Below are positions 43,908 to 62,105 of a stretch of DNA of 64,000 bases, in pieces (position 1 is the stretch's first letter; each line of letters starts with the position of its first letter). The notes beneath the pieces were generated by a model that saw only the letters and a list, made by a program, of their open reading frames with translations, was not told where the DNA came from and made no database searches. The stretch comes from Candidatus Gastranaerophilales bacterium (lineage in GTDB: Bacteria > Cyanobacteriota > Vampirovibrionia > Gastranaerophilales > Gastranaerophilaceae): contig CALVEB010000010.1 in the NCBI GenBank assembly GCA_944326465.1, positions 1 to 64,000 on the forward strand, read 5' to 3'. The position numbers and the translations under genes were made by a program.

Positions 43908-44966
43908 ATGAAAAAGATAAATATGCACTCAAGACAAGCTTTCACTCTCGCCGAGGTCTTAATAACTCTAGCTGTTATCGGCATTGTTGCCGCGTTAACC
44001 CTTCCGGGTCTCATCCAGAACCACAATGAAAAAGCATGGTCTACAGCGAAAGATCTCTGGGAAAAGAAGTTAACTGAAACAGTAAGACGCATGAACATTG
44101 ACGGAGTCATGACAGGACACGATACTACAGAGGATTTCATGAACACTTTCAAAAACTACATGAAAGTTATTAAAACCTGCGACAATAGCGACATTAATAA
44201 GTGCTACTCACCTAAAGTTGTCACAACAGGTAAGAACGATGCGTTAGAAGAAATTGAAACCGACGGTCTTACTTCTGCATCAAGCATGGGATTAAAAGAA
44301 TGGCAAACTAATACAAATACCATGTCTTTTGTAGTTGCGGACGGAACAACGGTAATTATGGCGTACCAGCCGGAATGCCCTTATGCAGATCCGATAGAAG
44401 ATACAGGAAGTCAAGTAAGCTGCATGGCATACATGGTAGATGTAAACGGAAAGAAAGGCCCGAATAGAGTTGGCAAAGATATTCAACTATCATCAGGTGT
44501 AGCCTTCTCAACTTGCGATAACCCTATAGGCGACATGTGCTGGTCAACAGATTTCCTAGCAAACCGTGCAATAGATACATGCGTTGGCAGCGAATATGAA
44601 GATATGGAAGAACAACATGGAAGCTACTGCTCTACAAACTATTGGGCAGGAGCAAAACTAAGCTGCCAAGATAAAGGCATGGAACTTCCAACGAGAGCAC
44701 AATTAGCACAACTAGCTAATGAATTATACGTAGACAGCAACGGTAATGCAGTAGAGATAGCATATAACGAAGACAAATCAGGAATCAAACTCAAAGACGA
44801 ATACAGCCAAAATCCTCCTCTTACTCTTGGCTACGTCTACTGGTCCAGTGAGGAGTACCGTGCGAATCTCGCGTACTATCGGAACTTCTACACTACGGGC
44901 AGCAGTAGCAGGAACAGCACCAGCAAGAACTTCAGCCACCTCCGCGCTATATGTATATCGAACTAA
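43908..44966 (+). CDS. Prepilin-like variable surface protein (copy 2, complete)
   Basis: 352 residues. The N terminus RQAFTLAEVLITLAVIG is a type IV prepilin/pseudopilin cleavage-methylation motif (F after the cleavage site, E at +5) followed by a hydrophobic helix, so it probably passes through a pilin-type export system. The body has many cysteines and DVNGKKGPNRVGKD. The C-terminal module has MELPTRAQLAQLANELYV, YWSSEEYRANLAYYRNFY and RAICISN, Lcl/DUF1566-like. Codons after about 44829 are richer in NNC and differ from copy 1, while the last block and stop hairpin are conserved. An AGGAGG site precedes ATG. Confidence 0.88.
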   Translation: MKKINMHSRQAFTLAEVLITLAVIGIVAALTLPGLIQNHNEKAWSTAKDLWEKKLTETVRRMNIDGVMTGHDTTEDFMNTFKNYMKVIKTCDNSDINKCYSPKVVTTGKNDALEEIETDGLTSASSMGLKEWQTNTNTMSFVVADGTTVIMAYQPECPYADPIEDTGSQVSCMAYMVDVNGKKGPNRVGKDIQLSSGVAFSTCDNPIGDMCWSTDFLANRAIDTCVGSEYEDMEEQHGSYCSTNYWAGAKLSCQDKGMELPTRAQLAQLANELYVDSNGNAVEIAYNEDKSGIKLKDEYSQNPPLTLGYVYWSSEEYRANLAYYRNFYTTGSSSRNSTSKNFSHLRAICISN

Positions 44967-45397: not shown

Positions 45398-46846
45398 TTA
45401 TGCTTGCGTATTTAGTTCCTTTTCAAGATCTTGTTTTACCTGAAAATCTTTATTTCCGCTCAGGCATCTTACTGCTATCATAATAAGCGGTACGGCAACT
45501 CCTAATGCAGCAACGCAGCTTCCCAGATTTATCTTTACTGCATTCCGTTTATGCTTTTTAACCATATTCAAGAACTCATCAAGTCCCTTGTCAGAAGATA
45601 AATATTCCTTATAAAGATTATTGAGTTTTGTATGAATACCTTTTACGCCGCTTTTCGCCTCTGCATCGCCGATATCAAGATATCTTCTCGTATCAATCGC
45701 ATCTTTATCCTGAATTTCAAGGTATGGAAGATGCAAGAATTTTTTCGCCTTATTAACCCAGTTATCAGATGCGCCCAGTGTGATAATCTCATCGGATTTC
45801 TTCGCCATCTTAACAACCACGTTATCAGGATTTTTGTGTAAAAATTCGTATATTTCAACATCAGTTCCGTTTACCGGGAAAGCTTTCATTTGTTTTTCAA
45901 ACTCAACCTTATTTGCAAAAGCTTTTCTCAAATCTTCACTTTCTATAACTCTTGCATCAAGATCAATAGAATGATTGTATTTTTTAACAGATCTGTTTTC
46001 AAGGAATTTCTGTATAGGCTTGCTTGCAAAATACATAAATCCCCATGTCGCACCTTCTTTTATTGAATAACCTATGAATTCCTGTTTGTTTCTGGAATCA
46101 GAAAGTCTTTCTGCCGTAATCGTACCGTCTACAATCATCAAGTTCTGAACCGGATCAAACATAAAGTTTTGGAGTTTATTCGCTGCCTGTGCCGCGAAAT
46201 TTCCAAAGCCTGTAAAAGCAGGTGAATGTTCTTTAGATCTGTCCGCCGGTTGTGCGTTGTTCAAAAATGACTGCAAAGAAGGTTTGTTTAGCGGGAACTG
46301 TTTTGCCGCCTGTTCTCTCTGTCTTTGTGCCAGAATTTCTTTTTTCGCTGCTTCTCTTGTCTTTTTGTGTCTGTATTTAGTAAGGCTTGCATAAGAGAAA
46401 ATCGTCAACAGGGTTGCAATACCGAATTTACTAATCATAAGAGTTTTAGAGAATTTCGGATTATTTTTCATGGCAATAAGACCTTCTTTGAGTATATCGT
46501 GTTTAGGTCTTGCGCCCTGTTTAACAACATACGGTGAAAGTTCGATTGCTTTGTCAAGTAAATCAGGATGTTTCAGCATTCTGACATCGACTTTAGGGTC
46601 AATTTTTAAAGCTCTGTATAGTGTAAGGTCAGTAATTGTTTTGTAAACAGGGAGTCCGAAAAGCCATATTGCCTGTGTACCGAACTCGTCTAAAAATCTG
46701 TCTTTGCCTTCTAAAGAGTCGCCTGTGACATAAGAACCGGCTGTTAAACCGAGACTGTTTGCGACATCTTTGACTGCCAGGGGTACTAATGAACTGTTAT
46801 TTCCTAATGTTGAATATATAGCGCTTGCTGTAAGTTTTGGTATCAT
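45398..46846 (-). CDS. Hypothetical membrane protein
   Basis: 482 residues. Hydrophobic segments occur around residues 145-160 (TLLTIFSYASL) and near the C terminus (CVAALGVAVPLIMIAV). Between them is a charged linker rich in Gln and Ala. I recognise no family; such large proteins with ATWGFMYFASKPIQKFLENR look lineage-specific. Its leader (46847-47225) contains a short frame and an attenuator-like terminator. Confidence 0.7.
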   Translation of the reverse strand: MIPKLTASAIYSTLGNNSSLVPLAVKDVANSLGLTAGSYVTGDSLEGKDRFLDEFGTQAIWLFGLPVYKTITDLTLYRALKIDPKVDVRMLKHPDLLDKAIELSPYVVKQGARPKHDILKEGLIAMKNNPKFSKTLMISKFGIATLLTIFSYASLTKYRHKKTREAAKKEILAQRQREQAAKQFPLNKPSLQSFLNNAQPADRSKEHSPAFTGFGNFAAQAANKLQNFMFDPVQNLMIVDGTITAERLSDSRNKQEFIGYSIKEGATWGFMYFASKPIQKFLENRSVKKYNHSIDLDARVIESEDLRKAFANKVEFEKQMKAFPVNGTDVEIYEFLHKNPDNVVVKMAKKSDEIITLGASDNWVNKAKKFLHLPYLEIQDKDAIDTRRYLDIGDAEAKSGVKGIHTKLNNLYKEYLSSDKGLDEFLNMVKKHKRNAVKINLGSCVAALGVAVPLIMIAVRCLSGNKDFQVKQDLEKELNTQA

Positions 46847-47063: not shown

Positions 47064-47094
47064 AACAAGACCTTTCTTTCTGAAAGGTCTTGTT
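47064..47094 (-). terminator. Intrinsic terminator in the leader of the 482-aa gene
   Basis: AACAAGACCTTTC and GAAAGGTCTTGTT form a 13-bp stem, followed by a T-run on the minus strand. On that strand an upstream stretch (47136-47146, reading AAAGGCTTGTT) could pair with one arm and act as antiterminator. It may instead end a small RNA starting near 47190. Confidence 0.65.
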
Positions 47095-47230: not shown

Positions 47231-47395
47231 TTAGCGGTAGCGATTAAGAATATTTTTAAGCTGCTGCGTAACATCTTGCACAGAATTGCCTCTTATTTGA
47301 AACAACTACCAACCTTGCGGGATAGGCTTATTATTCGGCTCGTATACATGTATAGATAATTTTTCTAGGTTTTCATAAAGTTTTATTTTATCCAT
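47231..47395 (-). pseudogene. Short gene interrupted by in-frame TAG
   Basis: ATG 47395 has a strong AAGGAG site and encodes MDKIKLYENLEKLSIHVYEP and NNKPIPQGW, then TAG (47306-47308), after which the same frame continues LFQIRGNSVQDVTQQLKNIL for 24 codons to TAA. This looks like a truncated gene with a nonsense change, or a 29-residue peptide. It is divergent from the small membrane protein genes. Confidence 0.4.
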
Positions 47396-47429
47396 AATTT
47401 TCTCCTTATTTTTGTAATATAATTGTTGT

Positions 47430-47774
47430 ATGAATCCGTTCAAAATAAATCAAAATTTAACATTTAATATTTATGCACTAAATGGATATGTTTCCTTAAT
47501 ATTAATTTTGCTTTTATATAATCACAGATATTCATTATATTTTTTTGAGATCTTTATATTGTATGTACTTATATCACATATTATTTTTGTTATTGTTTTC
47601 ATTGTTGAAATTATAATTAACAAAAAAATTTTGTGGAAATTCAATGTAGAATATAGTAATAATCTATTTGCAAAAAGTTATTTTTTGTTTAGCCTAATAT
47701 TAAATATTTGTTTTTATTGTTTTTTGTATGTAGAAATAATAAGACCAATTCTAATATTTGTTTACTGGAATTAA
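47430..47774 (+). CDS. Small membrane protein, tandem paralog 1
   Basis: 114 residues. The start MNPFKINQNLTFNIYALNGY is shared by three of four tandem genes. Three to four hydrophobic segments with a conserved loop EIIINKKILWKFNVEYSNN between the middle ones. No known family recognised. A+T-rich codon use, even compared with its neighbours. Confidence 0.72.
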   Translation: MNPFKINQNLTFNIYALNGYVSLILILLLYNHRYSLYFFEIFILYVLISHIIFVIVFIVEIIINKKILWKFNVEYSNNLFAKSYFLFSLILNICFYCFLYVEIIRPILIFVYWN

Positions 47775-47795
47775 TTTTTGTGCTAAATTTTATCA

Positions 47796-48140
47796 ATGAA
47801 TCCGTTCAAAATAAATCAAAATTTAACATTCAATATTTTTGCATTCAGTGGCTATGTTTTGGGTGTATTGAGTCTATTAGACATTGCATATTGTAAGTAT
47901 TCATCTATGGATTCAATGTTCTTATCGTTTTTACCTATCATTTGTTTAATAATTTTTTATCCTTGTATTATATTTTTATTTATTCTAGAAATCATAATAA
48001 ATAAAAAAATTTTATGGAAGTTTACTATAGAGTATAGTAATAGTTGGTTTTCAAAAGCATATTTTTTTTATGGTATATTGTTACATATTTATTTTTGCAA
48101 ATATGTTTTTGATAATATAATAATTGCAATGTTGATATAA
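47796..48140 (+). CDS. Small membrane protein, tandem paralog 2
   Basis: 114 residues. Opening MNPFKINQNLTFNIFAFSGY and loop EIIINKKILWKFTIEYSNS are nearly the same as paralog 1; membrane segments between differ. It starts 21 bp after paralog 1. Duplicated start regions extend into the upstream non-coding sequence, showing recent duplication. Confidence 0.72.
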   Translation: MNPFKINQNLTFNIFAFSGYVLGVLSLLDIAYCKYSSMDSMFLSFLPIICLIIFYPCIIFLFILEIIINKKILWKFTIEYSNSWFSKAYFFYGILLHIYFCKYVFDNIIIAMLI

Positions 48141-48181
48141 ATTCTATGTCATATTATTAAATCTCATGTTAAACTTAATTT

Positions 48182-48655
48182 ATGAACGTATTAAAAATAA
48201 ACAAATCACTAACTCTAAACATAGCAGCATTGGTTGGCTGGATAAATCTGGTTGCCCATATTTTTGTCTCAATAATTGTCTATTTTGATTTATTTCAAAT
48301 TGAGAAAGAAGACGGATCTGCCATTACTGGATTTTGGATTTCACTTATCGTACATTGGGTGATTTTGTTAGGTGTTCTTGGCGTGCTTGTAGTGCTTGTC
48401 TTGTTAGAGTTAATCTTACGGTTATTAATTCAGCGAAAATTGTGCTGGGGATTTAATGAAGAGTACAAGCATAATTCACGTGCTTTTATGTACTTTTATA
48501 TCGGACTATGGGCCAACTTCTTTACCTTCCTGACGCCGTTTATTTGCGAACTGTTGTTTAGAGAAAGTTATTTTGTTGCTCGTGTAATATTTTATGGAAT
48601 TTTAATCATTTCACTTCTCTCATACTGTGTTTATAAGTTAAAAAAGAGGAAGTAA
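48182..48655 (+). CDS. Small membrane protein, tandem paralog 3
   Basis: 157 residues, the longest and most divergent member. MNVLKINKSLTLNIAALVGW matches the family start and LELILRLLIQRKLCWGFNEEYKHN the central loop. About four membrane segments and a C-terminal basic tail (YKLKKRK). Function unknown. Confidence 0.72.
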   Translation: MNVLKINKSLTLNIAALVGWINLVAHIFVSIIVYFDLFQIEKEDGSAITGFWISLIVHWVILLGVLGVLVVLVLLELILRLLIQRKLCWGFNEEYKHNSRAFMYFYIGLWANFFTFLTPFICELLFRESYFVARVIFYGILIISLLSYCVYKLKKRK

Positions 48656-48691
48656 TCTTTACTCTTAAGCTTTTTGTGGTTTAATGTTTTT

Positions 48692-49039
48692 ATGAATCCT
48701 TTCAAAATAAGTCAAAATTTAACATTTAATATTTATGCATTTAATATATATGTAGTGGCGTTAACGCACATTATCAGTTATTGTTCATCTGCTTCGGCTC
48801 TTATGTTCAGGACTGAAGCTCAGAGCTTTGCCTTTTCATATCTCGTATTTTTTGTGCTTCTGTTTTTACCAAATATCTTTTTTCTGGAAATAATAATCCG
48901 CAAAAAATTCGTCTGGAAATTCAATGAGGAATATAGGCATAATAAATTTGCACTTGCATATTTTTGGGGCGGCGTTTGCTTGAACCTGATTTATTATTTT
49001 CTGATTTATAAGATTATTGTCGTCTGGAAATTTAGTTAA
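48692..49039 (+). CDS. Small membrane protein, tandem paralog 4
   Basis: 115 residues from ATG 48692 (MNPFKISQNLTFNIYAFNIY); an upstream in-frame ATG would add six residues foreign to the paralogs. The loop EIIIRKKFVWKFNEEYRHN is conserved. It closes the array and is followed after 80 bp by a secreted protease gene. Confidence 0.72.
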   Translation: MNPFKISQNLTFNIYAFNIYVVALTHIISYCSSASALMFRTEAQSFAFSYLVFFVLLFLPNIFFLEIIIRKKFVWKFNEEYRHNKFALAYFWGGVCLNLIYYFLIYKIIVVWKFS

Positions 49040-49121
49040 CTTAAATATTTAAAGAACAAAGCTTGCAAAATTATTAAAAATATGTTATGCTTTATTAAAG
49101 TTTGGAAAGGTGAAATTGATT

Positions 49122-50267
49122 ATGCTGAAAAAAGCACTGTGGGGATTTTTATTTATTATTTTTTTAGGTCAAATTGCATTTGCTGCAGGTAGTAGTAATG
49201 TTTTATCGGCTTCAGAGCTATATAAGAAAAAAGTCCCTTCTGTCTTGTTTATTGCGACTCAGGATAGTTCAGGCAGCGGTGCAATTCTTAAAGATGACGG
49301 GACTTTTGTTACTTGTTTTCATGTTATAGCTAATGCAGACTATATATTCGCTAAATCAGAAGATGGTGCAATATATTATGTTAATGGATACAGATATCTT
49401 GATCCCAAAACCGATGTGGCGATATTAACACTGGATACTAAACGTAAATTTATCCCATTTTCGCTAAATCCTTCCAATAATATAAAGATTGGCGAAAAAA
49501 TATATGCAATATCTAACCCGCAGACTTTACAATTTGTACTTTCTGACGGGATTATAAATCAGTTTACCAATAATTATATTCAATTTTCAGCGCCTGTGTC
49601 TCAGGGCTCCAGCGGCGGGGCGCTATTTAATACTCAAGGAAAATTACTCGGCATTATAACCTCACTGTTAGACCCTTCTGAGGCACAAAATATAAATTTT
49701 GCTCTTCCAAATTCATTTTATGCTGAAAAAATGAATGCTCCGGTTGTAATTAATACTCAAAAAGTTGATTGGACGGAATTTATGATTTCACAGCTTGATA
49801 TTGATAAATTTGAGGAGTTTACACAGTTTGCGACAGACCAGCGAAATTCTGCGATGTTTTATAAATATATGAATGCATATATAAAAAAGAAAGGAATGCC
49901 GGATCATTTCTACAATATATTGGGCTTTCTGGCAATGCTTGCCTACATGGACTCCGGAGAACAGACTTTTTTAGATGATGCAATAAAATGGTATAATTTA
50001 TCCTATAAAGATAACACTGCAAAAGAAGAATCCATTATCGCGCTTATTTATTTAAAAAGTTTGAAGAATGAATATGGAGATTTGGCAGATTTGTTTTCGC
50101 AATTAGAGAAAAAATATAAAAAGTCATATATTAAGCTTAACCAAATCTTAAATGAAACAAATAAGTGTCAGAGTGATGATGACGAGTGTTTTACGTACGT
50201 AGGGGCAAAATATATGAACTTTTTAATGAAAATACACTATAGTACATCAAAGTCACAAAAGGAGTAA
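49122..50267 (+). CDS. Exported trypsin-like serine protease with C-terminal helical domain
   Basis: 381 residues with a signal peptide (ALWGFLFIIFLGQIAFA). The S1C protease domain has His67 (TCFHVIANA), Asp98 (KTDVAIL) and Ser164 (QGSSGGALF). From about residue 210 there is a helical part with TPR-like spacing (HFYNILGFLAMLAYMDSGEQ) instead of a PDZ domain. ATG 49122 is preferred over a GTG at 49110 overlapping the AAAGG site. It opens a run of exported proteins (49122-51785). Confidence 0.82.
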   Translation: MLKKALWGFLFIIFLGQIAFAAGSSNVLSASELYKKKVPSVLFIATQDSSGSGAILKDDGTFVTCFHVIANADYIFAKSEDGAIYYVNGYRYLDPKTDVAILTLDTKRKFIPFSLNPSNNIKIGEKIYAISNPQTLQFVLSDGIINQFTNNYIQFSAPVSQGSSGGALFNTQGKLLGIITSLLDPSEAQNINFALPNSFYAEKMNAPVVINTQKVDWTEFMISQLDIDKFEEFTQFATDQRNSAMFYKYMNAYIKKKGMPDHFYNILGFLAMLAYMDSGEQTFLDDAIKWYNLSYKDNTAKEESIIALIYLKSLKNEYGDLADLFSQLEKKYKKSYIKLNQILNETNKCQSDDDECFTYVGAKYMNFLMKIHYSTSKSQKE

Positions 50268-52043: not shown

Positions 52044-52784
52044 TTAGTACCTTATTTTTCTCGGATAATCATCAGGAATTTTCCAGCCGTTTTTGGCAAT
52101 TATTGCAGTACAGTAGCCCCCGCTTGCACTTGATATACTACAACCTCTGTCCTGATCATTATATAAACTTTTAACCTCACCATCCCAACGATGCAGTGTC
52201 GGCTCTAATCCTTTTCCCATTAAGTACTTCCATGTCCAATCAGTATTTGATGACATTGAGATATTAACAGGATAAAATTCAAATGCAAAAGAACAAATGC
52301 CCAGACGCTCTTTTTTTTCTGCAAAGGTAATGCAATTTTCAGCTTTATACGGGAAAAACTCCCAATCGCGTATTTGATGATATACATATGCAAAAGCACT
52401 GCCATCCGGGAAAAAATATAAAAATCTCTTATTCCCTTCAAAATCAATTACTTCCTTTTTAGAAATGCCCTTCAGATATGGAGCAATGTATTTTTGGAAG
52501 GCAGCATCTGTTGCATCTGATTGATTTATTAAATTATCTTCATCATCATATTCGTCTGTCACCCAGTAATCCCATGTTTCCGGCGCTCCGTTGTCAACTT
52601 TTGACATTTGTATTGCCTGATTCATCATTGAATAGAATTTCGCAAGCCTTGCTTCGGTCATTTTTTCTGTGTATTGCTGTAATATTCCAGGAATTGTTAA
52701 TGCAGCGACTACTCCTATAATTGCAATGGTAATAAGAACCTCTGCAAGTGTAAACGCAAATTTTAAATTTTTAATATATTTCAT
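52044..52784 (-). CDS. Prepilin-type N-terminal cleavage/methylation protein
   Basis: 246 residues from MKYIKNLKFAFTLAEVLITI, a type IV prepilin/pseudopilin motif (cleavage before F, Glu at +5), with a hydrophobic helix. The body belongs to another subfamily than copies 1 and 2: it has no YWSSEE module and ends KNGWKIPDDYPRKIRY. GGAGGT lies 7 bp before the ATG. It is divergent from an XRE regulator. Confidence 0.85.
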   Translation of the reverse strand: MKYIKNLKFAFTLAEVLITIAIIGVVAALTIPGILQQYTEKMTEARLAKFYSMMNQAIQMSKVDNGAPETWDYWVTDEYDDEDNLINQSDATDAAFQKYIAPYLKGISKKEVIDFEGNKRFLYFFPDGSAFAYVYHQIRDWEFFPYKAENCITFAEKKERLGICSFAFEFYPVNISMSSNTDWTWKYLMGKGLEPTLHRWDGEVKSLYNDQDRGCSISSASGGYCTAIIAKNGWKIPDDYPRKIRY

Positions 52785-61002: not shown

Positions 61003-61037
61003 ATAATTATAATTAAATATCAAAGGAGAAAATGTTT

Positions 61038-62105
61038 ATGTTTAAAAAAGCTTTTACGTTAGCTGAAGTCTTAATAACTCTAGCAGTTATTGGCATCGTT
61101 GCCGCGTTAACCATCCCAAAATTTATCCAGAATAACAACCAGAAAGCATGGGATACAGCAGCAGATGTCTTTAACAAACGCTTAGAAGTCGCAGCCCGTG
61201 TCATGAATACACAGGAAACCTTAGCAGGATATTCAAACACCAAAGACTTTGTTACAGAACTTAAAAAGCACATCAAAATAACAAGAATATGCGATAACGA
61301 TGAATTAACAAAATGTTTCCCAGAAAAAGTATTCTGGGGCGCAGAGCAAGAAGAAATAGACGTAGACAAGGATATTAAAAGCGCTAAAAACATGGGACAG
61401 GATGACTGGGGAACAGAGGTAATCGGTGCACAGTTTGCAAACGGCATTGACGCACTTATTGCTTATGACCCGAATTGCACCCAAGACCCATATAACAACC
61501 AGATACAGGCATCAAACTGCATGGCAATATTATATGATGTCTCTGCCAAAAAGAACCCGAACAGCTATGGCAAAGACCTTCGTGCAAATGGTAACGTTCT
61601 TTCTTTAGGTGGTATTGAATGTGTTTTTGAAGTAAATGGAACATGTTATACTAATCCTACATTGCCAACACCAATGACACTTGCAGAATGTGAACAGGCT
61701 GTAGCAGAAGGCACATTAGGAATAAAAACTTGCGAATATGATAACGATTACTGGGCGGGTGCCGTAAAACACTGCGGCGGAGTTCAGAATATGCCAACAC
61801 CTACACAACTAGCAGAGATAGCAACGGATTTGTATGGAGATCATGGTTTTAGTAGCACTAACGATGGAACAACGTATGGCTTAACCATGGACAAGACAAA
61901 GCCATACGTATCAATCCTTAATGCCATATACGGCGACATGGCAGGAATCTCTGACAGAACTTTCTCGATTTGGTCAGGTCAAGAGTACAGTCGGTACAGT
62001 GCGTACAATCGTTTCTTCAATTCTACCTCTACGTACTTGGGCTACAACGGTGGTTCCGGCTACCGTGGTCTTAGCGACAGACTCGCGGTATGTATTAGCC
62101 ATTAA
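61038..62105 (+). CDS. Prepilin-like variable surface protein (copy 3, divergent)
   Basis: 355 residues from MFKKAFTLAEVLITLAVIG, a prepilin motif. The body shares with copies 1 and 2 a DV(S/N)xKKxPNxxGKD segment, YWAGAxxxC, and MPTPTQLAEIATDLYG. The C-terminal module reads SIWSGQEYSRYSAYNRFF then a Gly/Tyr/Ser stretch and DRLAVCISH. It has the same Lcl/DUF1566 outline but is not a recent duplicate. GGAG is 9 bp before ATG 61038; ATG 61032 is closer than usual. Like the others it is divergent from an XRE gene. Confidence 0.85.
   Translation: MFKKAFTLAEVLITLAVIGIVAALTIPKFIQNNNQKAWDTAADVFNKRLEVAARVMNTQETLAGYSNTKDFVTELKKHIKITRICDNDELTKCFPEKVFWGAEQEEIDVDKDIKSAKNMGQDDWGTEVIGAQFANGIDALIAYDPNCTQDPYNNQIQASNCMAILYDVSAKKNPNSYGKDLRANGNVLSLGGIECVFEVNGTCYTNPTLPTPMTLAECEQAVAEGTLGIKTCEYDNDYWAGAVKHCGGVQNMPTPTQLAEIATDLYGDHGFSSTNDGTTYGLTMDKTKPYVSILNAIYGDMAGISDRTFSIWSGQEYSRYSAYNRFFNSTSTYLGYNGGSGYRGLSDRLAVCISH

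What the first reader, a model, noticed from the sequence alone, without database searches (positions are those of the whole stretch)
47430..49039. Array of four small membrane paralogs of unknown family
Four genes in a row share (M)NPFKINQNLTFNI, and the loop E-I-I-x-x-K-K-x-x-W-K-F-x-x-E-Y-x-x-N. They are lower in GC than the surroundings and lie between a broken gene and a secreted protease. Possibilities include immunity proteins, channel proteins or surface accessory proteins. I know no family with this motif.
Basis: partly seen in the sequence, partly recalled or inferred. Interest (0 to 1): 0.55.

Follow-up and report, generated by a model that had tools for sequence, protein, structure and literature searches.

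The report
Orphan immunity array beside dead lipase
Four look-alike membrane protein genes in a gut bacterium are most likely antidotes against a lipase toxin whose own gene, next door, has been reduced to a scrap; close relatives keep the toxin and the antidotes side by side, pointing to a little-studied form of warfare between gut bacteria.

Summary
The array is real: four adjacent plus-strand genes (114-157 aa; one modelled, as three membrane helices) share an N-terminal block and a loop motif. No Pfam, NCBIfam, PADLOC or PHROG family and no solved structure matches them. The 'broken gene' upstream is the key. It is the remnant (first ~31 and last 23 codons) of a divergently transcribed class-3 lipase. 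In relatives (Gastranaerophilales MAGs) that lipase is intact, with an invariant Ser-Asp-His triad, and sits start-to-start with members of this family, up to 7 in a row.

Across 146 relatives, 27 of 33 close lipases have a divergent small multi-span membrane gene, against 1 of 37 remote lipases and 8 of 344 control ORFs. The C-terminal tags of these lipases are shared with DUF6973 proteins (19 of 31 with such a partner) and with a PBECR1-nuclease protein. Partner sequence follows the toxin domain, not the tag.

Best reading: polymorphic effector-immunity pairs. The window holds an orphan, recombining immunity array, like S. aureus tsaI/esaG strings but with no detected sequence relation. Toxicity, protection and delivery are inferred, not shown. 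No T7SSb (YukC) or T4SS (TraG-type ATPase) match passed its cut-off in the window's genus.

The parts
47430..47774 (+). Paralogue 1 (114 aa), small polytopic membrane protein, putative immunity protein
   Evidence: family profile
47796..48140 (+). Paralogue 2 (114 aa); orthologue at 96% identity in L034 14901-15245
48182..48655 (+). Paralogue 3 (157 aa), long form with extra turn and C-terminal extension; relatives 82-85% identical in L033 and L034
48692..49039 (+). Paralogue 4 (115 aa from ATG); AlphaFold2 model with three long helices 10-31, 34-70, 85-114 (mean pLDDT 84.9)
47234..47395 (-). Remnant of the divergent class-3 lipase gene: about the first 31 codons run into a stop and then directly into the last 23 codons; the catalytic middle is missing
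   Evidence: intact in L033 5506-6579 (357 aa) and L034 11622-12719 (365 aa)
47396..47429 (.). Short divergent intergenic region; extended -10-like element ending a few bases before the ATG of paralogue 1, no Shine-Dalgarno for that gene
49110..50267 (+). Trypsin_2 protein downstream of the array; also downstream of the arrays of G003 and G004, not of those of G001 and G002; a neighbour, not a part
45398..46846 (-). Conserved 482-aa flank gene that marks the same chromosomal slot in G001-G004; a neighbour, not a part

Best explanation
The four genes are orphan immunity genes. The family protects the cell membrane against a lipase effector of the Lipase_3 / Mbeg1-like alpha/beta-hydrolase kind. 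The effector has its catalytic domain at the N-terminus and a C-terminal tag, and is transcribed divergently from the immunity genes. Shown: the lipase is intact beside the family in relatives, its triad is invariant, and the window copy has lost its catalytic middle. Shown statistically: partner sequence follows the toxin domain and not the tag. Inferred: the lipase is delivered into neighbouring cells and hydrolyses phospholipids; the immunity protein sits in the inner membrane with the conserved N-tail and K/R-rich loop inside and the variable H1/H2 turn outside, and blocks the lipase there. Copies are kept after toxin loss because they protect against toxin variants of neighbours, and they diversify by duplication and recombination.
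For: Divergent slot: intact lipase at 8 of 17 family loci (one runs off its contig, one has a ~0.5 kb spacer), truncated or broken at 5, none detected at 4. Wider scan: a start-to-start small multi-TM ORF at 27 of 33 lipase ORFs with E<1e-22 but 1 of 37 weaker ones (that one matches by its tag), and 8 of 344 control ORFs. Independent hit: in G029 a weak family member found by the family profile lies next to a lipase found by the lipase profile. Shared tags: lipases and DUF6973 proteins share C-terminal tags (two tag clusters, both mixed); DUF6973 ORFs have such a partner in 19 of 31 cases; a PBECR1-nuclease protein carries the same tag ending. Specificity: over 28 lipase pairs the partial correlation of partner with N-domain given tag is 0.595 (0 of 2000 permutations), with tag given N-domain 0.086 (129 of 2000); 10 partner clusters, none mixed by toxin type (0 of 5000 shuffles). 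Enzyme: Ser121 conserved in all 27 rows, Asp171 and His214 in all 26 that reach them; model matches class-3 lipases at E down to 5e-10, among them a T6SS lipase effector, 9cys. Family: dN/dS 0.10-0.33 in 10 pairs, 8 with window copies; mosaic paralogues.
Against: No toxicity, protection or binding has been shown. The lipases show no obvious secretion signal by eye, and no delivery machine was found: T7SSb YukC 0 of 146 over cut-off, T4SS TraG-type ATPase none over cut-off in genus g1; a phage sheath occurs in G000 and G004 but not in lipase-bearing G002 and G003. 4 of 17 family loci have no lipase trace and 6 of 33 close lipases have no divergent TM partner by the criterion. At a looser threshold (1e-4) most partners of both toxin types fall into one cluster, so a shared non-immunity role of the common N-terminal segment is possible. 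Permutations ignore shared ancestry, and tag-given-N-domain (129 of 2000) is close to the 5% level.
Confidence: 0.72

Rival explanations
1. The membrane proteins are delivery or anchoring partners of the effectors (a membrane adaptor that recognises the C-terminal tag), not antidotes.
For: Partners of lipases and of DUF6973 proteins share an N-terminal segment (roughly h-x-N-I/L-h-x-x-x-G-Y/W, by eye) and most merge into one cluster at a loose threshold; tags are shared by toxins of different kinds; no other delivery component was found.
Against: Partner similarity follows the toxin domain, not the tag: three lipases in L121 have 99-100% identical tags but partners 29-34% identical, and L117/L121 lipases with tags 47% identical have identical partners. 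Copies persist where the lipase is gone.
Confidence: 0.13
2. A cell-internal toxin-antitoxin or abortive-infection module: the lipase stays inside the producing cell and attacks its own membrane, for example on phage infection; the membrane proteins are antitoxins.
For: No evident signal peptide on the lipase; two-gene divergent units; no secretion system found.
Against: No PADLOC hit for the four proteins or three lipases; mix-and-match tags and multi-copy immunity arrays with dead toxins are typical of polymorphic effectors (established knowledge; PMC9484751). No match of the family in phage or plasmid records, nor of the lipase in phage records.
Confidence: 0.12
3. Neighbourhood without function: low-GC islands collect small membrane genes near lipases by chance, and the array is decaying.
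For: Array is AT-rich and the family is found in only 15 of 288 genomes of the taxonomic family.
Against: 27 of 33 against 8 of 344; purifying selection; same pairing in several genera; co-variation.
Confidence: 0.03

Closest known systems
S. aureus TspA / TsaI (DUF443) locus (PMC7456083, PMC9484751; passages)
   Same: Strings of non-identical polytopic membrane immunity genes beside a polymorphic toxin; a single conserved block at the 5' end of the immunity genes; a toxin fragment in the array
   Different: TsaI is DUF443 with five predicted TM segments, N-out C-in; TspA is a membrane-depolarising T7SS toxin, not a lipase; no DUF443 or YukC match here
S. aureus TslA / TilA (PMC10730906; passages)
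   Same: N-terminal phospholipase domain and C-terminal targeting part ('reverse' order); variable numbers of immunity homologues at the locus
   Different: TilA is a DUF576 lipoprotein, not a polytopic membrane protein; TslA needs two small helical partners and a T7SS; here no YukC was found, small helical partners were not sought, and the genes are divergent
T6SS lipase effector-immunity pair of Enterobacter cloacae (PDB 7ubz, 9cys)
   Same: Class-3 lipase effector with cognate immunity protein; fold match E 2.9e-6 at 20% identity, the highest identity among the 50 rows listed
   Different: Its immunity protein is not a three-helix membrane protein (recalled); T6SS genes were not sought here beyond the sheath search
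EsaD / EsaG arrays (PMC9484751; passages)
   Same: Orphan tandem immunity genes kept where the toxin is missing; recombination between paralogues through conserved blocks
   Different: EsaG counteracts a nuclease toxin; sequence relation not tested here beyond the absence of any Pfam hit

Membership tests
Polymorphic effector-immunity systems (general kind) | Different toxin domains joined to a shared trafficking/tag domain | tested here: met
   Lipase_3, DUF6973 and PBECR1 proteins share C-terminal tags
Polymorphic effector-immunity systems (general kind) | Cognate gene beside the toxin, co-varying with the toxin domain | tested here: met
   27 of 33 close lipases, 19 of 31 DUF6973 ORFs; co-variation
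Polymorphic effector-immunity systems (general kind) | Toxin is delivered out of the producing cell | not testable with these tools
   No delivery machine identified
Polymorphic effector-immunity systems (general kind) | Toxin kills or inhibits, immunity protein neutralises | not testable with these tools
   Needs expression assays
TspA/TsaI (DUF443) immunity | Tandem, non-identical polytopic membrane protein genes | tested here: met
   4 copies in window, 7 in G003:C36
TspA/TsaI (DUF443) immunity | DUF443 sequence family | tested here: not met
   No Pfam family at E<=1 for P0001 and P0004; only unrelated sub-cut-off hits for P0002 and P0003
TslA/TilA | N-terminal lipase domain of class-3 type with catalytic triad | tested here: met
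   Lipase_3/Mbeg1-like above cut-off in L039, L122 and L119 lipases; Lipase_3 below cut-off in L033 and L034; triad; fold; phospholipase activity itself untested
TslA/TilA | DUF576 lipoprotein as immunity protein | tested here: not met
   No DUF576 (or other above-cut-off) Pfam match; three-helix membrane model
TslA/TilA | Type VIIb secretion system | tested here: not met
   YukC (PF10140) over cut-off in 0 of 146 genomes; control B. subtilis rings
Known anti-phage defence systems (PADLOC-DB 2.0) | Component matches a defence model | tested here: not met
   0 hits for the four proteins and three lipases; only E 0.033 for a DUF6973 protein
T6SS lipase effectors (Tle type) | Class-3 lipase fold closest to a T6SS effector | tested here: inconclusive
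   9cys_A at E 2.9e-6, among many fungal class-3 lipases of similar or better E

The most novel reading that the evidence does not exclude
Gastranaerophilales (non-photosynthetic relatives of cyanobacteria in animal guts) run an undescribed polymorphic effector system. Effectors carry the toxin at the N-terminus and an interchangeable C-terminal tag (YTRxDGTxVxGYYRS, WVTINGNHVxI or QSG.IP/FxI type) read by a delivery machine not yet recognised. Divergent, possibly leaderless small membrane proteins of one large, fast-evolving superfamily serve as immunity, each with its own promoter. The window is an orphan immunity island of that system.
Probability: 0.35. Interest if true: 0.8.

Novelty: new variant of a known kind. 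Interest (0 to 1): 0.6.

Why it matters
It gives a function hypothesis to a family with no annotation, ties it to a lipase and a DUF6973 effector family (DUF6973: 0 papers in the held library), and points to a competition system in a largely uncultured gut order for which the text searches made here found none described. The shared C-terminal tags are a direct handle for finding the delivery machine.

Tried and rejected
Known-family searches for the membrane proteins: Pfam, NCBIfam, PADLOC and PHROGs gave nothing above cut-off; PDB sequence profile search 0 hits; Foldseek only E>6; VIA-align second look best Z 4.5 to unrelated helical proteins, not informative. Viral contigs: no relatives. Phage and plasmid records: no match for the family; no phage match for the lipase or for one tag. 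Genome-contig scan: three loci, all Gastranaerophilales MAGs, whose contig lengths equal those of G001, G002 and G003 contigs already found. Channel reading: no fold match; dropped. Holin reading: gene 3 has sub-cut-off Hol_Tox/holin hits (E 0.08, 0.62); dropped. Surface accessory to the protease: the protease is missing beside the arrays of G001 and G002; dropped.

First DUF6973 counts were flawed because some loci were not scored on the right ORF; one search replaces them. One search's 31 ORFs include two long proteins (L110, L111) that match mainly by tag and truncated ORFs. G153 (weak family hit) gave no family ORF and was left out of the 17 loci; G315 (weak) was kept and counts as 'none'. 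The fragment L035 9453-9731 was left out of alignment A2 (24 of 25 members used). The covariation test used 28 lipase pairs (ORFs over 250 aa, lipase E<1e-21, partner gap up to 350). The 20 comparison genes for start signals were hand-picked. The TM criterion is a plain Kyte-Doolittle count, not a trained predictor.

Full report
What is there. Four adjacent plus-strand genes encode small hydrophobic paralogues. Three have the MNPFKI(N/S)QNLTFNI start and the EIIxxKKxxWKFxxEYxxN loop; the third gene is a longer, diverged member. These are the only four copies in the genome at E <= 1 by the profile. The genome is a 2.07 Mb, 52-contig assembly; matching public contigs of relatives are titled Candidatus Gastranaerophilales bacterium.

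Distribution. A profile of the four finds the family in 6 of 146 genomes (window genome included): G000-G004, i.e. five of the six genomes of the genus, plus one further genus. A profile of 24 members finds 15 of 288 genomes of the taxonomic family in 6 of 41 genera, three of them weak (E 4e-4 to 9e-4). No match in viral contigs, phages or plasmids.

Structure and topology. AlphaFold2 with 24 rows gives three long helices, mean pLDDT 84.9, pTM 0.75. The N-tail (entropy 0.59) and the loop before helix 3 (1.37, mean 4.5 K+R) are conserved and positive, so probably cytoplasmic; the H1/H2 turn is the most variable (2.88) and has no net positive charge. No known fold or family matches.

The broken gene. 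On the minus strand, with its start 35 bases before that of the first paralogue, about 31 N-terminal codons run into a stop and directly into 23 C-terminal codons of a lipase. In G002 (L033) the gene is intact with 357 codons and in G003 (L034) with 365 codons from its ATG, in the same chromosomal slot beside the conserved 482-aa gene. The own genome has no other copy of this lipase, only remote matches (best E 5e-5).

Family loci. Of 17 loci examined, the divergent slot holds an intact lipase in 8 (G254 runs off the contig; G265 has a longer spacer), a truncated or broken one in 5 (G000, G001:C15, G003:C45, G011, G215) and none in 4 (G001:C5, both G004 loci, G315). Damage is mostly on the toxin side; one membrane copy is also damaged (L035 9453-9731, a fragment).

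The lipases. Lipase_3 and Mbeg1-like score above Pfam cut-offs in the L039, L122 and L119 copies; Lipase_3 is below its cut-off in L033 and L034. NCBIfam gives a partial SA1320-family match at E 1.5e-10 to 1.7e-13, below its cut-off. In an alignment of 27, Ser121 is invariant in all 27 and Asp171 and His214 in the 26 that reach them. The model (mean pLDDT 80.7; first 190 residues mostly 72-97, C-terminal part 44-83) matches class-3 lipases, including the E. cloacae T6SS lipase effector 9cys at 20% identity.

A general pairing. The lipase profile found matches in 44 of 146 genomes; I fetched regions for the listed matches (those already held not again). Among 70 lipase ORFs of at least 180 aa, 28 have a divergent start-to-start small multi-TM ORF. 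Split by E-value this is 27 of 33 below 1e-22 and 1 of 37 above; the control rate is 8 of 344 (split counted by me from its table). The single exception in the weaker set matches by its C-terminal tag: its N-terminal domain is DUF6973. DUF6973 ORFs themselves have such a partner in 19 of 31 cases. A 798-aa protein next to the L111 lipase carries a PBECR1 nuclease domain, a sub-cut-off LPD3 match and the same tag ending as the lipase.

Immunity or adaptor? If the partner read the tag it should follow the tag. It follows the toxin domain instead: partial r 0.595 for N-domain given tag (0 of 2000 permutations) and 0.086 for tag given N-domain (129 of 2000), 28 pairs. Examples: three lipases in L121 with 99-100% identical tags and N-domains 43-45% identical have partners 29-34% identical; L117 and L121 lipases with N-domains 95% and tags 47% identical have identical partners. 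Against this simple picture, the adjacent partners in L033 and L034 are only 31% identical although both lipase domains (76%) and tags (81%) are similar; there the array order differs. Ten partner clusters at E<1e-6 never mix toxin types (0 of 5000 shuffles), while both tag clusters do. At E<1e-4 most partners of both types merge, and profile comparison of the window family gives 91% probability with one other lipase-partner group and 83% with one DUF6973-partner group, but under 21% with several others, so one superfamily is likely for part of them only. Permutation tests ignore shared ancestry.

Evolution of the array. dN/dS is 0.10-0.33 in ten family pairs, eight with window genes, and 0.20 for the lipase pair (ratios computed by me from its dN and dS). 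Paralogues are mosaic: L034 13735 and 14517 are 58-77% identical over the middle and 100% over the last part; L033 6644 and 8043 are 88-100% identical apart from one 60-base block at 57%, near the H1/H2 turn, and the far 3' end. The first 60 bases are 82-100% identical in most of the short-form pairs listed there. This resembles esaG/tsaI strings, for which conserved blocks and recombination (esaG) or a single 5' block (tsaI) are reported (PMC9484751, passages).

Delivery. YukC (T7SSb) 0 of 146 over cut-off; TraG-type ATPase over cut-off in 13 of 146 genomes, none in genus g1; phage sheath in 18 of 146 over cut-off, with G000 and G004 but without G002 and G003. The route is unknown, which is the main gap.

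Literature. No held paper mentions DUF6973. 'Melainabacteria' with 'polymorphic toxin' gave one paper, on cyanobacterial symbionts (listing only); 'Gastranaerophilales' with toxin and immunity gave 57 papers, and none of the ten listed is about bacterial effector systems by title. 'Lipase effector' with 'transmembrane immunity protein' gave none.

Verdict. Function by analogy: an orphan immunity array in a polymorphic effector system; probability 0.72. It works like TspA/TsaI and TslA/TilA but is not a member of either. New variant of a known kind.

Noticed in passing
window 47400-47430, 47770-47796, 48160-48182, 48670-48692 and 20 relatives: None of 24 family genes has a Shine-Dalgarno by a simple pattern; 15 of 24 fit an extended -10-like pattern just before the ATG (14 of 20 hand-picked comparison genes have a Shine-Dalgarno, 4 of 20 the -10 pattern). 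Suggests leaderless mRNAs with one promoter per copy.
   Followed up: partly
L111 7277-9673; L110 1871-3247, 3274-4728, 6450-7880: Long proteins next to lipase pairs share their start with each other; the two checked have a sub-cut-off LPD3 match, one also a PBECR1 nuclease domain, and end in the lipase's C-terminal tag.
   Followed up: partly
L145, L146, L151, L153: Remote lipase domains inside ORFs of 1704-2724 aa without divergent TM partner.
   Followed up: no
G000:C3:37577-38107: Phage tail sheath (PF04984, E 7.8e-27) in the window's own genome; prophage or contractile injection system not resolved.
   Followed up: no
window 43908-44966, 52044-52784, 61032-62105: Several pilin-like proteins with a start like FTLAEVLITLAVIGIVAALTIP and different remaining parts.
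   Followed up: no
window 47064-47094: Perfect 13-base inverted repeat with 5-base loop between the 482-aa gene and the lipase remnant, terminator-like.
   Followed up: no
L113 3538-6107: Two tandem related proteins (the one scanned is DUF3137) lie upstream of a weak family member on the same strand, so some relatives may have another partner.
   Followed up: no
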